From Paracholeplasma brassicae (GTDB lineage Bacteria; Bacillota_I; Bacilli_A; Acholeplasmatales; UBA5453): a stretch of DNA of 64,000 nt. The notes under the pieces are model-generated. The model ran no database searches and was not told the DNA's origin. It was given only the letters and a program-made list of their open reading frames with translations. Positions 44,407 through 55,707 of the stretch are shown piece by piece (positions within the stretch are counted from its first letter, which is position 1; each line of letters opens with the position of its first letter). Location: the NCBI RefSeq assembly GCF_000967915.1, contig NC_022549.1:1724366-1788365 (forward strand). The letters are read 5' to 3'. The position numbers were made by a program, and so were the translations under genes.

Positions 44407-45228
44407 ATCATCACCTCATCTATTTTAACATTTTTGACAAAAATGTATAATAGTTCGCTTGTGTTTTTTCGCTAATAACTTAGATAGTATACTACAATCA
44501 TCGCCTTTTTTAAAGTAGAAAACACCTGTATAATACGTTTTAATCTAATCATTGTGAATAATCAACCAGGGACTGAATTTTTGAGAACAAACTCTCACGA
44601 TTTAATCTAATCCAAAGATTGATAAAGCATTGACAAATATGATAGGAATTAACCATTGGTGCCAAGCATAATAATTATTGAGATTTGATTTCAAGTGATT
44701 AAACCTCTATTAATTTTGCTGTTTTGGATAAATAATAAAATTAGACTGATGTTTCGTGCATAAATTAGTCTTACTTTGAATACCTTTTTATACGAAATAA
44801 TATATGGCCTGTTAATTAAATCTGAAAATACTAACTTGATGTGTTCGACTACCATTTTTATACATATTAAATCCTGATATTTATTGTAGCTTCTCTAATT
44901 TTATAGTAACTATTGATTAGTTTATTCTAAACTATTTATAAAATTATAAAATTTCATATAAAATCGTGTTCAGAATATAAATCATCTTCAAAAACATTAT
45001 TAATACTTGCATTACGTTCACAAAATCAATTAAATTACATGTCAATTTTTTATTTTTTAAAGAAAAACATAATTTATATATTTATATTGAATAATGTGTT
45101 TACAATTTATATTTTGTATGATATATTTTAATAGAATGATGTAAGCATTTTCTCGTGGAGATGAATTTAAATTTCGTGCAACTCAATTTATAAGTGTTGA
45201 AACGGCAATTGTTTTTTAGAAAAAAAAT
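44407..45228. other. Long AT-rich region without genes
   Basis: About 820 bases of very AT-rich DNA between tsaE and the IS3 element. The first bases must hold the tsaE promoter. I see no open frame with a ribosome binding site, tRNA or clear hairpin. It is likely degraded insertion DNA. Confidence 0.55.
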
Positions 45229-46074
45229 TTAAATAGACATCGCATTTCTATATTCAACGGGTGATAAATACCCTAAACTGCCATGAATCCTTTTATTGTT
45301 AAACCAGTAAACATATTCAAATAGTTCTGTTTCTAATTGTTCAAATGAATCGAATCTTTTCCTACCAAACTCGATTTTAAATGATTTAAACGTTGATTCA
45401 GCTACTGCATTGTCATAAGGATTGCCTGGACGAGATAATGATCTTATAATCTCGAATACACTTAGTATCTCGTCAATGATCTGATTATCAAATTCTTTTC
45501 CTCGATCGGTATGGAATATATTGATATTCTTTATGGGAATACTTAGACTATAAAATGCTTTTTGAACTAGATTTGCATCCTTATGTTTTACATAGCTATA
45601 ACCGATGATTTCACGATTGAATAAGTCAATTAGTATACAAATATAATTCCACTTACCAGCCACGTTAACGTAGGTTAAATCACTGACAACGACTTCATGT
45701 TTTTCGTAGTTGTCAAATGATCTGGATACGATACTTTCAATTTTTTGTTCATTAGTTGAAGATTTGGTTGGCTTATACCTAAAGACTATATAACAGCTTA
45801 CTAACCCGTTTCTTTCCATAATCTTTCGTATTTTCTTCCGAGACATTATGATATTTTTCTTAGATAATTCAAACTTGATTTTTCTAGAACCATAACGGTT
45901 TGTTGATTCTTCAAATATTTGAATGATTTCTTTATCTTCTATTGTCTCTACCTCTGTTTGGATTCGGTTAATCTCATAGTAATAATTTGATCTTGGTACA
46001 CCTAAAAGAAGGCACATTTTTGTGATTGAATACTTATGGGTATTGCGGCTTATGAGTTGGATTAACACCCACAT
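45229..46074 (-). mobile_element. IS3-family transposase OrfB
   Basis: 281 aa with an N-terminal HTH_21-like segment (GVPRSNYYYE, RYGSRKIKFEL) and an rve integrase core carrying the catalytic triad Asp132 (VSDLTYV), Asp190 (FHTDRG) and Glu226 (VAESTFKSFK). It looks intact. In IS3 elements OrfB is normally made as an OrfA-OrfB fusion by frameshifting, but OrfA here is broken, so the element is probably immobile. Confidence 0.92.
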
Positions 46075-46262
46075 TCAGCGCTGCTTGATTTAAAATATCA
46101 TTTTCCATCTTAAAGCTCTGCCATGCGTTTCTTAAGTGCTTTTAGCTCTCTTTGTCATCGGTTAAATTATCATTGGTCTCAAATGAACCTGTAGTGTTTG
46201 AGTCTTTAATCCACTTATGAATCGTTGTTCTTGTCACATGATAATCTCTTCTAGTGTTTGTT
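46075..46262 (-). pseudogene. Remnant of IS3 OrfA
   Basis: Reading the minus strand across three frames gives RDYHVTRTTIHKWIKDS (a helix-turn-helix), then ELKALKKRMAEL and KMENDILNQAAL (the leucine-zipper part of OrfA). At least two frameshifts separate the pieces and the N-terminal ~25 residues are missing. TGGACAGTTTTAGAATAG on its distal side may be part of a terminal repeat. Confidence 0.75.
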
Positions 46263-46554
46263 TAATTTTAACATGTCTATTCTAAAACTGTCCAACTAAG
46301 TATAACCTATCTATACTAAGTCAGTAAATATAGTGTTGTTAAACGTTTTTTTTGTCCTATAGTCAGTAATTTGGTTAACTATTAATGATCGAACGATGAT
46401 ATCCAATTCATAAATGCTTATCCTTTATGCAACCTAAGTGCACTGAATGCCCTTAAATTACTCAATATTTCACAATAGAAGATATTTTTTAAGATTAATA
46501 TCGCTATATTTCTAAGTTCATATAATTATTCAAAATGGAAAGGAGGGAGAATAT

Positions 46555-46671
46555 ATGAACAATTTTAACATTGTGTCACCAAAAGAATTTGTAAACTTTT
46601 ATCCTGTATGTGATTGCACAATAAATGCATTCCCTGGATGTGGTGGGACGACAAATGTAGGCTGTATTTAG
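46555..46671 (+). CDS. 38-aa cysteine-containing peptide, possible bacteriocin/RiPP precursor
   Basis: ATG 46555 is preceded by AAGGAGGGAG, a near-perfect ribosome binding site. The peptide has an N-terminal half without Cys (MNNFNIVSPKEFVNFYP) and a core with four Cys (C-x-C, then P-G-C-G-G and V-G-C-I). A hydrophilic leader followed by a Cys/Thr/Gly-rich core is the shape of precursors of lanthipeptides, sactipeptides or disulfide bacteriocins. A second such gene and an ABC exporter follow. No modifying enzyme is seen nearby. Confidence 0.65.
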   Translation: MNNFNIVSPKEFVNFYPVCDCTINAFPGCGGTTNVGCI

Positions 46672-46713
46672 AAGTATTATAAATTAGTATTATTAAATAA
46701 AGGAGGTGAAAGT

Positions 46714-46815
46714 ATGCAAAATTTTTCTGGATTGATGCGACCAATGGGAATAAATATAGTACCAAAATGCTCTTGTGAGATAAACGTTTTAAAATGTTTA
46801 TGTACATATAGCTAG
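46714..46815 (+). CDS. 33-aa cysteine-containing peptide, possible bacteriocin/RiPP precursor
   Basis: ATG 46714 with a perfect AAAGGAGGTG seven bases upstream. The peptide ends in a four-Cys core (K-C-S-C, K-C-L-C-T-Y-S) after a Cys-free leader containing MRPMGINIVP. It differs from the first peptide in sequence but shares length, position of the cysteines and context, as in two-component bacteriocins. A 14-bp hairpin follows the stop. Confidence 0.65.
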   Translation: MQNFSGLMRPMGINIVPKCSCEINVLKCLCTYS

Positions 46816-46826
46816 GAAATCATAAA

Positions 46827-46863
46827 AATTATCCACAATACTATATAAATATTGTGGATAATT
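46827..46863 (+). terminator. Strong hairpin between the peptide genes and the exporter
   Basis: A perfect 14-bp stem (46827-46840 with 46850-46863) around a 9-nt loop, followed by a short T-run. It is likely a partial terminator that keeps exporter mRNA below peptide mRNA. Confidence 0.7.
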
Positions 46864-46890
46864 TTCTAATAACAAATAGGAGGTAAAATA

Positions 46891-48657
46891 GTGAGAACAA
46901 TTAAAAATTTCTTGTTCGTTTTAAAGGAAATATATGTATTACAAAAATCATATTTGGTTGTTAATTTTTTTTACGTGGTTTTTGCTTCCATGAAGCCTAT
47001 TAGTTCAGCCTTAGTAATAAAAATTGTAATAGATGGGTTAATTGAAGATGTTGAGTTAAGGGAAAATTTAAATGTAATTTTACTTTATCTCCTATTGATT
47101 TCTTCAATAGAGATACTACAAACAATACTAGGAAAATACTTAAACGAGATTTTATCCACAAAATTAAAGGATAAGTTAAAGTTAAAATTTTGTGACAAAG
47201 TCAAACATATTGACAACTCAGCTTATGAAAACCCCGAGTATTACAATGTAATGACTAGAACTATGGCAAATGGGGATTCTAGATATATCGCTGTATCGGA
47301 TACATTCTTTAATTTTTTCGGAAGTATTTTGGTGATTACTGGGTTAACCTCACTAATCATAGTATTAAATATAACGTTAATATATTCTGTACTGATTTTT
47401 GTAGTCCTTAAAATAATAATCTCCTCATTAATAAAGAAGTTAACATTTGATGAGTATATCAGCTTGACAAGAAGTAATCGATACATTGACTATTTTACTA
47501 GATTATTTAGATTACCGACTTTCATTAATGAAATCAAGTTATTTCCTTTAGAGGACGTTATTAGACAAAAACATATAGATGAAAGTAACCAACGATTATT
47601 AATGAAGATGAAATTTAAAGGTAAACAAAATATATATAATGTATTAAATAATGTTATAGATGTATCTTTTATGGGATTCGTTATTATTTTCTTAGTTATT
47701 GAAATCGGTAACAATAGAAGTAGTGTCGGTGATTTTGCAGCATTAATGAACTCAACGCAACAATTAGGGATGTCATTAGTGTCTTTTCTATTAATTATAC
47801 CAAACTTAAAGGAACACAATAGGTATATTAATGATATGAAAAGCTTCTTAGAGTATAAAGGTGAAATAGAAACTAATAACGGCGAAAATTTAACGACAAT
47901 TGACAAAATTGAATTTAAAGATGTATCTTTTTGCTATCCAAATACTCAATCAAATTCACTAAATAATATCAATATTACTATCCATAAGGGTAGTAAAATT
48001 GCACTTGTTGGTCATAATGGGGCGGGAAAATCCACTTTAATCAAATTGATTTTAAGATTTTTTGATCCAGTAACTGGTGTTATACTAATAAATGATAAAA
48101 ATTTAAAATTATATAATGCAAATAGTTACCGTAATCACTTTGGGGTTATTTTCCAAAACTATCAAGTTTATTCATTATCAATAGAAGAAAATATATTATT
48201 AAGAACTATTAATAGCGACGAAAGAATCGACGTTTTATGGGAATCATTAAACTTAGTAGAGTTAGCAGACAAAGTAAACAGTTTACCTTTGAAGGAAAAA
48301 ACTATTTTATCAAAAGAATTTAGTGAACAAGGCACTATTTTATCTGGTGGGGAACAACAAAAAGTTGCAATTGCTAGACTTTATTCAATCAATAAAGATG
48401 TTGTGATCTTAGATGAAGCATCGAGCGCTCTGGATCCATATACAGAACATAAGATTAATAATATGCTTTTAGATAGTTTTAAAGATAAAACCGTAATTAT
48501 TATATCTCATAGATTGTCAATCACAAAAAACGTTGACAAGATATTTATGATAGAAAACGGTAATATTATCGAGCAAGGTAATCATAAAGAGTTGATAAAA
48601 ATGTCAGGAGGTAAGTATGCTGAAATGTATAACTTACAAGCTAATAATTATAAGTAA
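46891..48657 (+). CDS. ABC exporter (membrane-ATPase fusion), lantibiotic-type
   Basis: GTG 46891 follows AGGAGG. 588 aa: six TM helices to about residue 310, with the SAYENPEYYNVMTR linker I recall from NisT/SpaT-like exporters, then an ATPase with Walker A GHNGAGKST (374-382), Q-loop FQNY (421-424), signature LSGGEQQ (484-490) and Walker B VVILDEASSALD. There is no N-terminal C39 peptidase, so it would not cut a double-Gly leader. It most likely exports one or both peptides encoded just upstream. Codon use is AT-rich. Confidence 0.85.
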   Translation: MRTIKNFLFVLKEIYVLQKSYLVVNFFYVVFASMKPISSALVIKIVIDGLIEDVELRENLNVILLYLLLISSIEILQTILGKYLNEILSTKLKDKLKLKFCDKVKHIDNSAYENPEYYNVMTRTMANGDSRYIAVSDTFFNFFGSILVITGLTSLIIVLNITLIYSVLIFVVLKIIISSLIKKLTFDEYISLTRSNRYIDYFTRLFRLPTFINEIKLFPLEDVIRQKHIDESNQRLLMKMKFKGKQNIYNVLNNVIDVSFMGFVIIFLVIEIGNNRSSVGDFAALMNSTQQLGMSLVSFLLIIPNLKEHNRYINDMKSFLEYKGEIETNNGENLTTIDKIEFKDVSFCYPNTQSNSLNNINITIHKGSKIALVGHNGAGKSTLIKLILRFFDPVTGVILINDKNLKLYNANSYRNHFGVIFQNYQVYSLSIEENILLRTINSDERIDVLWESLNLVELADKVNSLPLKEKTILSKEFSEQGTILSGGEQQKVAIARLYSINKDVVILDEASSALDPYTEHKINNMLLDSFKDKTVIIISHRLSITKNVDKIFMIENGNIIEQGNHKELIKMSGGKYAEMYNLQANNYK

Positions 48658-48696
48658 ATAATACTTTAGAATGAAAATCTATTAGAAAAATATGAT

Positions 48697-48843
48697 AAAA
48701 GGCGTTTATCGAATGGCCCGATAGAAAATATGAACTCTCAAATAAAGACGATTATTAAAACATCAAATGGCTATAAAGATTTCAGAAGATTAAGAAATCG
48801 AATCTTATACAGTTTAAACAAAGATACGCCTATCAAAGGGTAA
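48697..48843 (+). pseudogene. C-terminal fragment of a transposase (ISL3-like)
   Basis: A frame without start reads LSNGPIENMNSQIKTI then NGYKDFRRLRNRILYSL and stops at 48843. NGPxExxNxxIK followed by a GYxxFxxxRxRI block is the end of ISL3-type transposases. The rest of the gene is gone; the fragment begins 40 bases after the exporter. Confidence 0.75.
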
Positions 48844-48864
48844 GGATATTGTGTGTGGACACAT

Positions 48865-48904
48865 AAAAAAACACAGAAATCTAATGATTTTCTGTGTTTT
48901 TTTT
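48865..48904. terminator. Bidirectional terminator
   Basis: Stem AAAAAACACAGAAA/TTTTCTGTGTTTTTT with an 8-nt loop, A-run and T-run on the two sides. Confidence 0.85.
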
Positions 48905-48906
48905 AT

Positions 48907-48955
48907 TCACAACCTAGATTTGACAGGTCGAAAACCCCAATCACAACCTAGATTT
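48907..48955. repeat. Two copies of a 15-nt direct repeat
   Basis: TCACAACCTAGATTT occurs at 48907-48921 and 48941-48955 (34-nt period) between the terminator and pgi. Only two copies, so not a CRISPR; it may be the scar of a small duplication or an insertion-sequence target. Confidence 0.6.
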
Positions 48956-49041
48956 TATAAAGTCTTTTAATCCTCATTTCGTTACAGATCCTTATATTGT
49001 TCTATTTTCTTTATTATCCAATAAGAAAACAATTGTTTGAA

Positions 49042-50546: not shown

Positions 50547-51917
50547 TTAGTTACTCCCATGTTGTTTACGCATCTCAACTTCGATATTAATTCGAACTGA
50601 AACACTATTTTTTAATTCAAATATCGTTTCTTTTGTTTGTTGTATTTGTGTTAAGAGTTGATTTCTAATGGTGTTCATTTGCTCTTCTAAGCTCCATTCA
50701 AAAAGTGCTTCAAAGCCTTCAATCGATAACCCATAGGATTTAAAGATTTCATTATGTGTCTCATAAATTGCTTTATACTCTAATGCCATTTCTTTTGACG
50801 TTAATAGTTTTACCTCAAAATTCACATAGATGTAGTAATCAAGGTAGGCTTCATAATTCGTCTCTATGAGTTCATAAACACGTTCGTTGAGTTGATCAAG
50901 AATTTCAGTTCTAAGGACTAACTTCGCTTTTAATTCAGTGATAACCTGTGCTTTTTTCTCTTGATGATAAGAATCAAACAATGCTTTTATCTCTAAATCA
51001 ATTGCGTTTAGCGCATCCGTCTTCTCTATGATTACCGTATCAAGTAAAATCATTTGATTAATTTCTGTTTCAGCGGTAATGCTAGAAGTCGTATCGATTA
51101 GACGCAAATCGTTTTGATAGTCTTTATATAAATCAACCAAAGCGGTCTTTGTCAGACTGGTTTCTTTTAAGTAATCGTCATAAAACGTGGGTTCTAATAA
51201 TAGCTTTGACTGAGCAAGTGCAGCAATCAAATTCACTTTTGCTAATCTAAAGGTCATGTAGCGTCTTGCGATGACAGCTTGATACATGTTTTGATAGTTC
51301 TTTGGTAATCCATCACTTAACTGCGTTTGATGAGTACTTAAGCGAGACATAATCTCATTGACGCTCATTGCTTTTGCTTCTTCATAAGTTAATTCAATTT
51401 CAAATGCCATTAACGCCTCAATAAGTCTTAGTTTCCCAATGGATACTTGAAGTTGAACACTTCTATTTATCTCAAACGCATTTGGTTCTTGGTGATCTTT
51501 TGAAAGTTCAATAGCCGCTTGGTGTTCATTTTCATACGATTGTATTTTTTTCTCAATTTTAGCTTCAACCCTATTTTTGATTGATTCATCTTCAGCTAAA
51601 GTAGTGATTAAAACGTGTTTTTCATCGCCTTTAAAATACCCTTGTTGTTCAGCCTCATCAATCAACGTAACGACTGCTAAATCAATAGACATCCCAACCA
51701 CTGTCTTTTCGTTCATAGCGACAAGTGCGTCTTCATTGGTTTTATAAAAACCCGTTACTTTACCTTCGCTATTAACCATAAGTTCATAAGATGGGTTAAT
51801 GTCTACTGCAACATAACTCTCGTAGTTGGTGTCTTCGCTTGTTTGACAAGCCGATAAAAGCGTCAAACCAACAGACACAATTAAAGCAAGTGTTGCTATC
51901 ATAAAATACTTTTTCAT
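50547..51917 (-). CDS. RsgI-like lipoprotein
   Basis: ATG 51917 with AGGAGG upstream is preferred to ATG 51944 (overlapping rsgI). 456 aa: signal peptide with lipobox LLSAC, then a domain beginning YVAVDINPSYELMVN and continuing NEDALVAM, matching the extracytoplasmic domain of RsgI-type anti-sigma proteins; the rest (150-456) is long coiled-coil-like helices rich in Glu, Leu and Lys. It shares the DINPS domain with the preceding gene, so the pair arose by duplication, one membrane-spanning and one lipid-anchored. Confidence 0.8.
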   Translation of the reverse strand: MKKYFMIATLALIVSVGLTLLSACQTSEDTNYESYVAVDINPSYELMVNSEGKVTGFYKTNEDALVAMNEKTVVGMSIDLAVVTLIDEAEQQGYFKGDEKHVLITTLAEDESIKNRVEAKIEKKIQSYENEHQAAIELSKDHQEPNAFEINRSVQLQVSIGKLRLIEALMAFEIELTYEEAKAMSVNEIMSRLSTHQTQLSDGLPKNYQNMYQAVIARRYMTFRLAKVNLIAALAQSKLLLEPTFYDDYLKETSLTKTALVDLYKDYQNDLRLIDTTSSITAETEINQMILLDTVIIEKTDALNAIDLEIKALFDSYHQEKKAQVITELKAKLVLRTEILDQLNERVYELIETNYEAYLDYYIYVNFEVKLLTSKEMALEYKAIYETHNEIFKSYGLSIEGFEALFEWSLEEQMNTIRNQLLTQIQQTKETIFELKNSVSVRINIEVEMRKQHGSN

Positions 51918-51940
51918 ACTTATGTTACCTCCTTTAAAAC

Positions 51941-53257
51941 TCAATCTTCCATCAAATCTTCATAGAAATCCATGACTGATTCGTAATAGTCGCTCTCTAA
52001 TATGTCTTCTGAGACAAGTTCAGAGTCAATATAACTTTGTATCTCACTGTGGATTGATTGAACTAAGCTTCGATGAATGAACGACCCTGTTTTTTCATAA
52101 ACCCTTAAATGATTTTCTAATCGGTTTAATAAAATATAGAATGCTCGATCATTTTTTGAAGTCGTTTGAGCAGGTCTAAATCCCGCCTTGACTTGATCAA
52201 CAAACGATTCATTATAGTTTGATTTAATCGTAAGTTCTCCCTCATAATTGAGGTTTTTCCACGAATCAATGCTTGATTTAATATCCATATCAAATCCGTT
52301 ATCGAGTTCATCTATTCGCTCTTCTAGGTAGTCCTCTAAATCATCCTCTAGCGTTTCAATGATTATTTCTAACATCTCTTTTGATTCTACTATCTCTAGT
52401 GATGGAAAAAGACTTCTTAGTTTTTCATAGTTTTCTAAGGCTTCATCAAAATCTTCATCAATGGATTTTTCAAGTGCTTTTAAGTACGTTTTTACGTCCT
52501 TCTCTATTGTTTCAATAGATTCAATCAATTGTTCTTTTTCGATTTCTTGTTCATCTTTAAACTGATCAATCATTTCTTTAACTAGCCTCATCTTATCTTG
52601 ATCAAGTGCACTTAACATCTTCGTTAGATTACTAACCGATTCTTTTGAAAGTTGATCAAAGCTCAAGTTAGGTTGTCTTTCAAGTAAACGTTCAATGAGC
52701 ACAAGTTTTCCTGTAGAGATTTGTTCGATATTACTTGGTTTCTCATTAACAGTCACTTTGGGATTATTTAAAAATCGTTCAATGAGTTCTTGTCGTAGGT
52801 TTGTCTCAATTGTTTGATTGTCATTAATGACATTGATGGTCACTTGTTTGTCAACCAAATAACCATAGACTTTCGCTTCTTCAATTATTTTATTTACTTC
52901 AATGTCGTATGGTGAATTTAGTGTCAATTGAATGCCTGATAATAAGACAACGGCATCTTCATTTAATGGGGTATAGGCAACCAATAACCCGTCGTTATCA
53001 ACTTCAAATTCAATGGATGGGTTAATGTCGATTAATAAATAACTATTATAATAATTAACAGGTTCATCTGGTCTTGATTGGAGAATGCCAATCACCCCAA
53101 GAACAATTAATACCCCCATGAGTGCGAGCTTATAAGAAAATGAGAATCGCCTTTTAGTGATGGGTTCTTGTATGCAAGAAAGAACGCGGTTTTTGGTATC
53201 TCTAACGAAATACGCTTTTTCAGCTTTTAACATCTTCTTTAATTTTCTGTTGTTCAT
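51941..53257 (-). CDS. RsgI-like transmembrane anti-sigma factor
   Basis: 438 aa: a cytoplasmic N-terminus of ~40 residues (MNNRKLKKMLKAEKAYF..., likely sigma-binding), one TM helix (about 43-60), then an external YLLIDINPSIEFEVD domain and a long acidic helical region with many Glu/Asp residues. RsgI proteins hold their sigma factor inactive until an outside signal is sensed, often leading to cleavage in the external domain. ATGA overlaps on both sides tie it to the sigma gene. Confidence 0.82.
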   Translation of the reverse strand: MNNRKLKKMLKAEKAYFVRDTKNRVLSCIQEPITKRRFSFSYKLALMGVLIVLGVIGILQSRPDEPVNYYNSYLLIDINPSIEFEVDNDGLLVAYTPLNEDAVVLLSGIQLTLNSPYDIEVNKIIEEAKVYGYLVDKQVTINVINDNQTIETNLRQELIERFLNNPKVTVNEKPSNIEQISTGKLVLIERLLERQPNLSFDQLSKESVSNLTKMLSALDQDKMRLVKEMIDQFKDEQEIEKEQLIESIETIEKDVKTYLKALEKSIDEDFDEALENYEKLRSLFPSLEIVESKEMLEIIIETLEDDLEDYLEERIDELDNGFDMDIKSSIDSWKNLNYEGELTIKSNYNESFVDQVKAGFRPAQTTSKNDRAFYILLNRLENHLRVYEKTGSFIHRSLVQSIHSEIQSYIDSELVSEDILESDYYESVMDFYEDLMED

Positions 53258-53781
53258 TGATTGGCACCTCCTTCCAAGTAACCCCTTAATTTTGTTAAGG
53301 CTTCGTTTAGTTTAAATGTGACGCCTGAGGTCGATAAATTGAAAATTTCAGCCACTTCTCTTCTGGTTTTATTTTCAACGACACAGTACATCACAATGAG
53401 GAATGATTGCTCATCTAATACCTCATGTGCAAGATTAATCAGCGGTGTTTGTTCAACTTCCTCTGCCTGAATAAAACTGATCTTGTTGTCTTCAATGATC
53501 ACTTCTCTTTGTCTTTTTTTGATTAAATTCAGTGCTTCATTTCGAGCGATCATTAAAATCCAGGCCTTTGGGGACTGTTGGTCTTGATACGAATCAATTC
53601 GATTCACTACCTTCATATAGACGTCTTGCATCAAGTCTTCGGTTAAATTGTGATCGTGACAGATCTGATACACTTGATAATATACCAAACGATTGGTTTG
53701 GTCATAGATAACCTCAATGGCGTCTTTGTTTCCCTTTTTAAGGCTGTTCATCGCTTTTGATAATTTTTGATTATCAAACAT
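53254..53781 (-). CDS. ECF-type RNA polymerase sigma factor
   Basis: 175 aa: sigma region 2 (NKDAIEVIYDQTNRLVYYQVYQICHD to QDVYMKVVNRIDSYQDQ, Trp in KAWILMIARNEAL) and region 4 with helix-turn-helix (NKTRREVAEIFNLSTSGVTFKLNEAL). Region 3 is absent, as in ECF sigmas. First gene of the operon and presumably autoregulated. Its target promoters are unknown. Confidence 0.9.
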   Translation of the reverse strand: MFDNQKLSKAMNSLKKGNKDAIEVIYDQTNRLVYYQVYQICHDHNLTEDLMQDVYMKVVNRIDSYQDQQSPKAWILMIARNEALNLIKKRQREVIIEDNKISFIQAEEVEQTPLINLAHEVLDEQSFLIVMYCVVENKTRREVAEIFNLSTSGVTFKLNEALTKLRGYLEGGANQ

Positions 53782-54609: not shown

Positions 54610-55707
54610 ATGAAAAAATTATTAAAACTTTTTTTTGTCTATCTTCTCTTGTTAGTCTTTGGGTTTTTAATCGGTTTTGGTTTTGCTAGGCTTAATCTGC
54701 CTGTAAAGAACCCTTTTGCATTGTCTGGCTTTTTGATGATGCTATTGTGGTTCTTACCCGCATTATTCCTTACCGTTTTCTTCCACGAACTTGGTCACTT
54801 GATCCTTGGTCTACTCACTGGTTATGAGTTTGTTAGTTTTCGTGTGCTTAACCGTTTGATAAAAAAAGAAGATGACAGGCTAGTTATTAAAAAATTCAGT
54901 TTGAAAGGTACACTTGGACAATGTTTACTATTGCCCACCGAAAAGTCACTTAATCATCCTTTTTGGTATAATTTTGGTGGTGTTTTCTTCAATCTAATCA
55001 TCTTTTTTTCTTTGATTCCACTGTTATTTTTTGTAAAAAGCAATCTCTTATTTCTACCACTACTATTTACGATTGTTCTTAATTTGCTTTTTGCCTATAT
55101 CAACTGGGCAAAGACACCAGGTCTTACGAACGATGGCAATAACTATCGTGAACTAAAAAAGCATCCAACATCTAAAGCGTCTTACTACCAACTGCTTAGG
55201 ATCAACCATTTGTTATCAAATGGCGATGATCTTAGAAACGTTGAATTTACTATTGCTGAAGATAGTCTTGATTTATCAAAGAACATACAAGTGAACTACG
55301 CCATGTTTTTGGTTTTATATTATCACCTGACCTTTCAAATGGATAAAGCAAAAACGCTCGTTGACTCGATTGAAACGAACTACCCTCACAAGCAATCCAT
55401 TCTTGGTAGCATGTGGTTAGCTAACAAGCATTTTCAAGATTATTACTTTGAAGTGGCCGAAAAAACAGAAGACAAACGACTTAAACTCATTTTTTCTGAT
55501 AAAAACACCGATCCCGGCATCGCATTATTTCATTTTTACATCACCTATTTGAATACTGGGCAATACCCAACGGATTTGGATGAACTTTTTCAAAAGAACT
55601 TGAAAAATTCACCAAATAAGGGTGTCATTGAGCCATACTTAGCATTCAAATCATTCTTGATTGATGACGTGATAAAGAAACAAGAATCAATAGAACAATC
55701 AATATAG
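54610..55707 (+). CDS. M50-type membrane metalloprotease with C-terminal soluble domain
   Basis: 365 aa: zinc motif HELGH at 59-63 inside a TM helix and a second metal-ligand region TNDGNN (Asp175) after further TM helices, the order of site-2 proteases. About four TM helices cover the first 170 residues, and the C-terminal 190 are helical and TPR-like (RINHLLSNGDD ... QMDKAKTLVDSIETNYP). No partner gene is adjacent. Its possible substrate could be a membrane regulator such as the RsgI-like protein 1 kb away, but that is only proximity. Confidence 0.85.
   Translation: MKKLLKLFFVYLLLLVFGFLIGFGFARLNLPVKNPFALSGFLMMLLWFLPALFLTVFFHELGHLILGLLTGYEFVSFRVLNRLIKKEDDRLVIKKFSLKGTLGQCLLLPTEKSLNHPFWYNFGGVFFNLIIFFSLIPLLFFVKSNLLFLPLLFTIVLNLLFAYINWAKTPGLTNDGNNYRELKKHPTSKASYYQLLRINHLLSNGDDLRNVEFTIAEDSLDLSKNIQVNYAMFLVLYYHLTFQMDKAKTLVDSIETNYPHKQSILGSMWLANKHFQDYYFEVAEKTEDKRLKLIFSDKNTDPGIALFHFYITYLNTGQYPTDLDELFQKNLKNSPNKGVIEPYLAFKSFLIDDVIKKQESIEQSI

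What the first reader, a model, noticed from the sequence alone, without database searches (positions are those of the whole stretch)
46555..48657. Minimal peptide-export locus with two tiny cysteine-rich peptides
Two short genes (38 and 33 codons) each have nearly perfect Shine-Dalgarno sites, Cys-free leaders and four-Cys ends, and are followed by a hairpin and a NisT-like exporter. No LanB/C/M, radical SAM or peptidase gene lies nearby, so the peptides may be disulfide-linked or modified elsewhere. They are below usual gene-calling limits and would be missed.
Basis: partly seen in the sequence, partly recalled or inferred. Interest (0 to 1): 0.82.

Follow-up and report, generated by a model that had tools for sequence, protein, structure and literature searches.

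The report
Small-peptide export cassette lacking its maturase
A small piece of acquired DNA carries two genes for tiny cysteine-rich peptides and the pump that probably exports them; it resembles known peptide-making gene sets, except that the usual enzyme that modifies the peptides is missing here and in the only relative found.

Summary
Two short ORFs (38 and 33 codons, strong Shine-Dalgarno sites, four Cys each) and a 16-bp hairpin precede an intact single half-size ABC exporter. All lie in a 4.6-kb AT-rich island, with transposase genes, that is absent from three same-genus genomes, where pgi and tsaE are direct neighbours. The peptides are related to each other and to a 36-aa peptide directly upstream of the related exporter in a goat-rumen Bacilli MAG (motif P-x-C-x-C-[ET]-I-N; 9 of 16 shared residues use different codons). 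No other member was found among about 85,000 species. Relatives of the exporter adjoin radical-SAM/SPASM RiPP maturases and Cys-rich precursors; one genome shows the full precursor-maturase-exporter trio. The window genome has no SPASM maturase, and its radical-SAM genes look housekeeping. The goat-rumen relative has only a 70-aa ORF resembling the maturase's leader-binding (RRE) domain. Best reading: a maturase-less derivative of a radical-SAM Cys-rich RiPP cassette, whose peptides are probably exported and disulfide-bonded; decay is the main rival. LanB/C/M and YcaO were not searched genome-wide. The 'would be missed' claim was not tested; both ORFs exceed the usual 90-nt minimum.

The parts
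44407..49041 (.). AT-rich island inserted between tsaE and pgi
   Evidence: tsaE and pgi are adjacent (about 37-87 bp apart) in three same-genus genomes; GC 20-33% inside versus about 38-40% in the flanking genes
45229..46074 (-). IS3-type transposase (OrfB-like, 281 aa)
   Evidence: Pfam rve, rve_2, HTH_21
46540..46546 (+). Shine-Dalgarno of pep1 (AAGGAGG)
   Evidence: sequence
46555..46671 (+). pep1, 38 aa: MNNFNIVSPKEFVNFYPVCDCTINAFPGCGGTTNVGCI
   Evidence: ORF; aligns with pep2 and the G291 peptide above shuffles (6 of 20,000 and 0 of 20,000 shuffles reach the score)
46700..46707 (+). Shine-Dalgarno of pep2 (AAGGAGGT)
   Evidence: sequence
46714..46815 (+). pep2, 33 aa: MQNFSGLMRPMGINIVPKCSCEINVLKCLCTYS
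   Evidence: ORF; 48% identical to the G291 peptide, 0 of 20,000 shuffles; 9 of 16 shared residues use different codons
46825..46865 (+). Hairpin between pep2 and exporter, possible attenuator
   Evidence: 16/16 pairs; -16.4 kcal/mol, z -4.7; not conserved in the relative
46878..46884 (+). Shine-Dalgarno of exporter (AGGAGGT)
   Evidence: sequence
46891..48657 (+). Half-size ABC exporter, 588 aa, GTG start, no C39 peptidase
   Evidence: Pfam ABC_tran 2.5e-30, ABC_membrane just below its cut-off; intact motifs; sister of the G291:C46 exporter, SH-aLRT 89, in the larger tree only
48670..48843 (+). ISL3-type transposase remnant (C-terminal end only)
   Evidence: Pfam DDE_Tnp_ISL3 7.6e-8, last 37 positions of the profile
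48865..48903 (.). Bidirectional terminator-like hairpin at the right side of the island
   Evidence: 15/15 pairs flanked by A and T runs; z -3.8

Best explanation
This is a horizontally acquired two-precursor plus exporter cassette, derived from the radical-SAM/SPASM Cys-rich RiPP gene sets of Bacilli, without the maturase gene. Inferred working: the two peptides are made in excess of the exporter (strong ribosome sites; a hairpin may attenuate exporter transcription). The homodimeric ABC exporter recognises the Cys-free N-terminal part and pumps the peptides out. Outside, the four cysteines (CxC plus two more) form two disulfides rather than enzyme-made thioethers. Shown: genes, island, peptide homology, exporter kinship, absence of SPASM maturases from the genome in model searches. 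Inferred: expression, export, disulfides, biological role (secreted antimicrobial or signal).
For: Peptide and exporter occur together in two distant Bacilli genomes, and the exporters are sisters in an 82-sequence tree. The peptide core is better conserved (64% over the best segment) than the exporter (34.5%), and 9 of 16 shared residues use different codons, so selection acts on the amino acids. Related exporters adjoin radical-SAM maturases: the G242 precursor-maturase-exporter trio, the lachnocin locus of a P. sordellii plasmid, a CXXX-repeat locus in G412, a truncated SPASM protein in G021. No SPASM protein in the window genome. No maturase remnant in the island. In G291 a 70-aa ORF follows the exporter and several of its best fold matches are RRE proteins.
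Against: No expression, export or mass data. No immunity gene was seen. The transposase remnants raise the chance that the locus is decaying. The sister pairing of the exporters is unresolved in the smaller tree. Leader cleavage has no candidate protease. The 70-aa RRE model is low confidence (pLDDT 58) and no fold match is significant alone (best E 0.31).
Confidence: 0.55

Rival explanations
1. Decaying orphan: the island once held a complete radical-SAM RiPP cluster; transposase insertions removed the maturase, and the precursors and exporter survive without function.
For: An IS3-type transposase lies on one side and an ISL3-type C-terminal remnant starts about 12 bases after the exporter stop. 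G021 and G291 also show what look like truncated maturases beside related exporters.
Against: All three genes are intact with strong ribosome sites; no maturase remnant is left in the island; the only other member also lacks the catalytic part yet keeps peptide and exporter intact, with the peptide core well conserved.
Confidence: 0.28
2. The peptides are modified in trans by an enzyme elsewhere in the genome, of a kind not searched here (lanthionine synthetase, YcaO, glycosyltransferase).
For: Exporters without a peptidase domain are common for modified peptides (own knowledge); genome-wide searches here covered only radical-SAM and SPASM models.
Against: The exporter's kin are radical-SAM systems, and such maturases are absent from the genome. 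The core of pep2 and of the G291 peptide has few Ser or Thr before its cysteines, which does not suggest lanthionine rings (sequence).
Confidence: 0.12
3. Secreted metal-binding peptides: the CxC pairs bind copper or zinc and the exporter is a metallophore or detoxification pump.
For: pep2 reads CxC-x6-CxC, a metallothionein-like spacing (sequence; resemblance from own knowledge).
Against: pep1 and the G291 peptide have other spacings of the last two Cys; no metal transporter or regulator lies in the island.
Confidence: 0.05

Closest known systems
Radical-SAM/SPASM Cys-rich RiPP cassettes of the TIGR04463 / CefB / Clo7bot / FlmE-OhkG kind (G242 trio, L159)
   Same: Tiny precursor with four Cys, one half-size ABC exporter of the same broad family, strong SD, compact same-strand operon
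   Different: The window has two precursors and no maturase anywhere found; its precursors share no recognisable sequence with the G242 one
Peptide-exporter locus of the goat-rumen MAG RGIG3506 (G291:C46, L107)
   Same: Homologous peptide (48% to pep2), related exporter, same gene order, no catalytic maturase
   Different: One peptide instead of two; a 70-aa RRE-like ORF follows the exporter; the hairpin is not conserved
Lachnocin locus of the Paraclostridium sordellii plasmid NZ_CP080292
   Same: Single ABC exporter (31% identity over the matched part) beside a short radical-SAM-modified peptide
   Different: Has its maturase and an S8 peptidase; the peptide sequence is unrelated
NisT-type lanthipeptide exporters
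   Same: TMD-NBD half transporter without peptidase domain
   Different: No LanB/LanC/LanM or LanP in the island; no NCBIfam equivalog cut-off reached by the exporter

Membership tests
Radical-SAM RiPP (ranthipeptide/sactipeptide) cluster | Radical-SAM/SPASM maturase gene | tested here: not met
   None in the island; no PF13186 in the genome; TIGR04085 only a weak sub-cut-off match in an AddAB-like protein; PF04055 matches read as MiaB, PflA, RlmN, HemW, NrdG and YtqA types plus one broken gene in an unrelated locus
Radical-SAM RiPP (ranthipeptide/sactipeptide) cluster | Short Cys-rich precursor next to an exporter | tested here: met
   pep1, pep2 and exporter
Radical-SAM RiPP (ranthipeptide/sactipeptide) cluster | Thioether cross-links in the product | not testable with these tools
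   needs mass spectrometry
Lanthipeptide cluster | LanB/LanC or LanM type synthetase | tested here: inconclusive
   None in the island; not searched in the rest of the genome
Double-glycine bacteriocin with C39 exporter | Exporter with C39 peptidase domain | tested here: not met
   Pfam finds only ABC domains in 588 aa; the membrane part begins near residue 24
Double-glycine bacteriocin with C39 exporter | Double-glycine leader | tested here: not met
   No Gly-Gly before the core in pep1, pep2 or the G291 peptide (sequence)
Peptide family of window and G291 (P-x-C-x-C-[ET]-I-N) | Shared motif and position upstream of related exporters | tested here: met
NCBIfam / Pfam families | Peptides match a described family | tested here: not met
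   No match for pep1 or pep2 in Pfam or NCBIfam at E up to 1; none for the G291 peptide in NCBIfam at E up to 0.01

The most novel reading that the evidence does not exclude
A secretion module that has dropped its modification chemistry: RiPP-type precursors with a conserved CxC core are exported by their dedicated ABC pump, in one member possibly escorted by a stand-alone leader-binding (RRE) protein, and mature by disulfide or metal chemistry outside the cell.
Probability: 0.3. Interest if true: 0.6.

Novelty: new variant of a known kind. Interest (0 to 1): 0.45.

Why it matters
Genome miners usually find RiPP-type peptides through the maturase; loci like this one would be passed over. If the peptides are really secreted, the family shows that precursor and exporter can persist without the maturase, which makes it testable whether leader recognition by the exporter alone is enough. 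The peptides match no Pfam or NCBIfam family.

Tried and rejected
Peptide searches in plasmids, phages and viral contigs found nothing. Phylum-wide peptide matches at E 0.002-0.01 were read and are chance. Many good exporter hits are heterodimeric pairs in housekeeping surroundings without Cys-rich peptides. Remnants of a maturase in the island: none. A possible link through an M50-like protein at 54610-55707 and one near the G021 exporter: the two are not alike. The 70-aa ORF has only a sub-cut-off, chance-looking Pfam match; its similarity to the G242 maturase N-terminus is E 5e-6 in a small set of maturase N-termini but only 0.018 in 5,203 frames. Papers naming Clo7bot, FlmE or lachnocin: none in the library.

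Full report
Observation. The three genes are at the stated coordinates with strong ribosome sites. The two peptides are the only ORFs in the window with ATG, strong SD, 25-60 codons and at least four Cys; 60 simulated windows gave one such ORF, and in 978 kb of comparison loci the same filter hit only small genes in loci that hold radical-SAM RiPP-type maturases. The hairpin is strong but not conserved in the relative.

Setting. In three genomes of the same genus pgi and tsaE are direct neighbours (about 37-87 bp apart); the window has 4.6 kb between them. This stretch has 20-33% GC against about 38-40% in the flanking genes and carries an IS3-type transposase and the C-terminal end of an ISL3-type transposase. 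None of the six same-genus genomes has an exporter this similar (E at or below 1e-55). The cassette was therefore most likely acquired.

Relatives. Exporter searches of 160 order-level and 395 class-level genomes led to a single-exporter locus in G291, with a 36-aa peptide directly upstream. That peptide shares M-x-N-[FY] and P-x-C-x-C-[ET]-I-N with pep1 and pep2. Shuffle tests: pep2/G291 0 of 20,000, pep1/G291 0, pep1/pep2 6. Nine of 16 residues shared by pep2 and the G291 peptide use different codons. A scan of about 85,000 species with the peptide alignment found only this genome, the goat-rumen MAG RGIG3506; the pattern used was strict, so more distant members could be missed. The two exporters are sisters with SH-aLRT 89 in an 82-sequence tree; in a 26-sequence tree with long-branched additions the fork is open.

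What it derives from. Related single exporters lie beside a truncated SPASM protein (G021), a CXXX-repeat radical-SAM maturase with Cys-rich peptides (G412) and a lachnocin peptide with its maturase. G242 shows the complete trio: 31-aa four-Cys precursor, 446-aa radical-SAM/SPASM maturase, one exporter. After the G291 exporter comes a 70-aa ORF. It resembles the N-terminus of the G242 maturase (E 5e-6 among maturase N-termini; 0.018 among 5,203 frames). Its single-sequence fold (pLDDT 58) is strand-strand-strand-helix-helix, and its best fold matches include TbiB1 and McbB at the top, and LasB1, ThcOx and CteB lower down, all RRE-bearing proteins, though none is significant alone (best E 0.31). 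RRE domains are known as discrete proteins under 100 residues with a three-stranded sheet (PMC7470986) and at the N-terminus of radical-SAM RiPP enzymes (PMC8326336). I take it as a probable RRE, either a maturase stub or a free protein.

The missing enzyme. The complete window genome has no SPASM match; TIGR04085 gives only a sub-cut-off match in an AddAB-like protein; the radical-SAM matches read as housekeeping types plus one broken gene in an unrelated locus. Lanthionine and YcaO enzymes were not searched outside the window.

Mechanism. I commit to export of the peptides by the dedicated pump without enzymatic cross-linking, followed by disulfide formation (0.55), with decay (0.28), modification in trans (0.12) and metal binding (0.05) as rivals. 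Against decay: every gene is intact, and the only other member also lacks the catalytic maturase while its peptide core is conserved at 64% against 34.5% for the exporter. For decay: transposase remnants abut the exporter.

Verdict. A real, rare peptide-exporter pair, a new variant related to the radical-SAM Cys-rich RiPP cassettes that lacks their defining enzyme; it cannot be filed as a member of that class.

Noticed in passing
window 50547-53781 (-): An ECF-type sigma factor gene followed by two RsgI-like anti-sigma genes lies between pgi and an S1-like gene that are neighbours in the sister genomes, so it looks like a second insertion.
   Followed up: partly
window 54610-55707 (+): A 365-aa membrane protein with an HELGH motif, not found at this place in the sister genomes.
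   Followed up: partly
L108:94-6677 (G000:C1 about 608-615 kb): A helicase/AAA gene row with matches to PADLOC defence models (MkoA, PDC-M37B) ends in a radical-SAM (NrdG-like) gene broken into two short frames.
   Followed up: partly
L155:4090-6367 (G291:C46): Two adjacent radical-SAM-like genes, the second apparently fused to a signal-peptidase-like part, on the same contig as the relative of this cassette.
   Followed up: no
L160:2498-9808 (G367:C29): A radical-SAM maturase, a 53-aa Cys-rich precursor, a 607-aa protein and two ABC exporters: an apparently complete RiPP locus.
   Followed up: no
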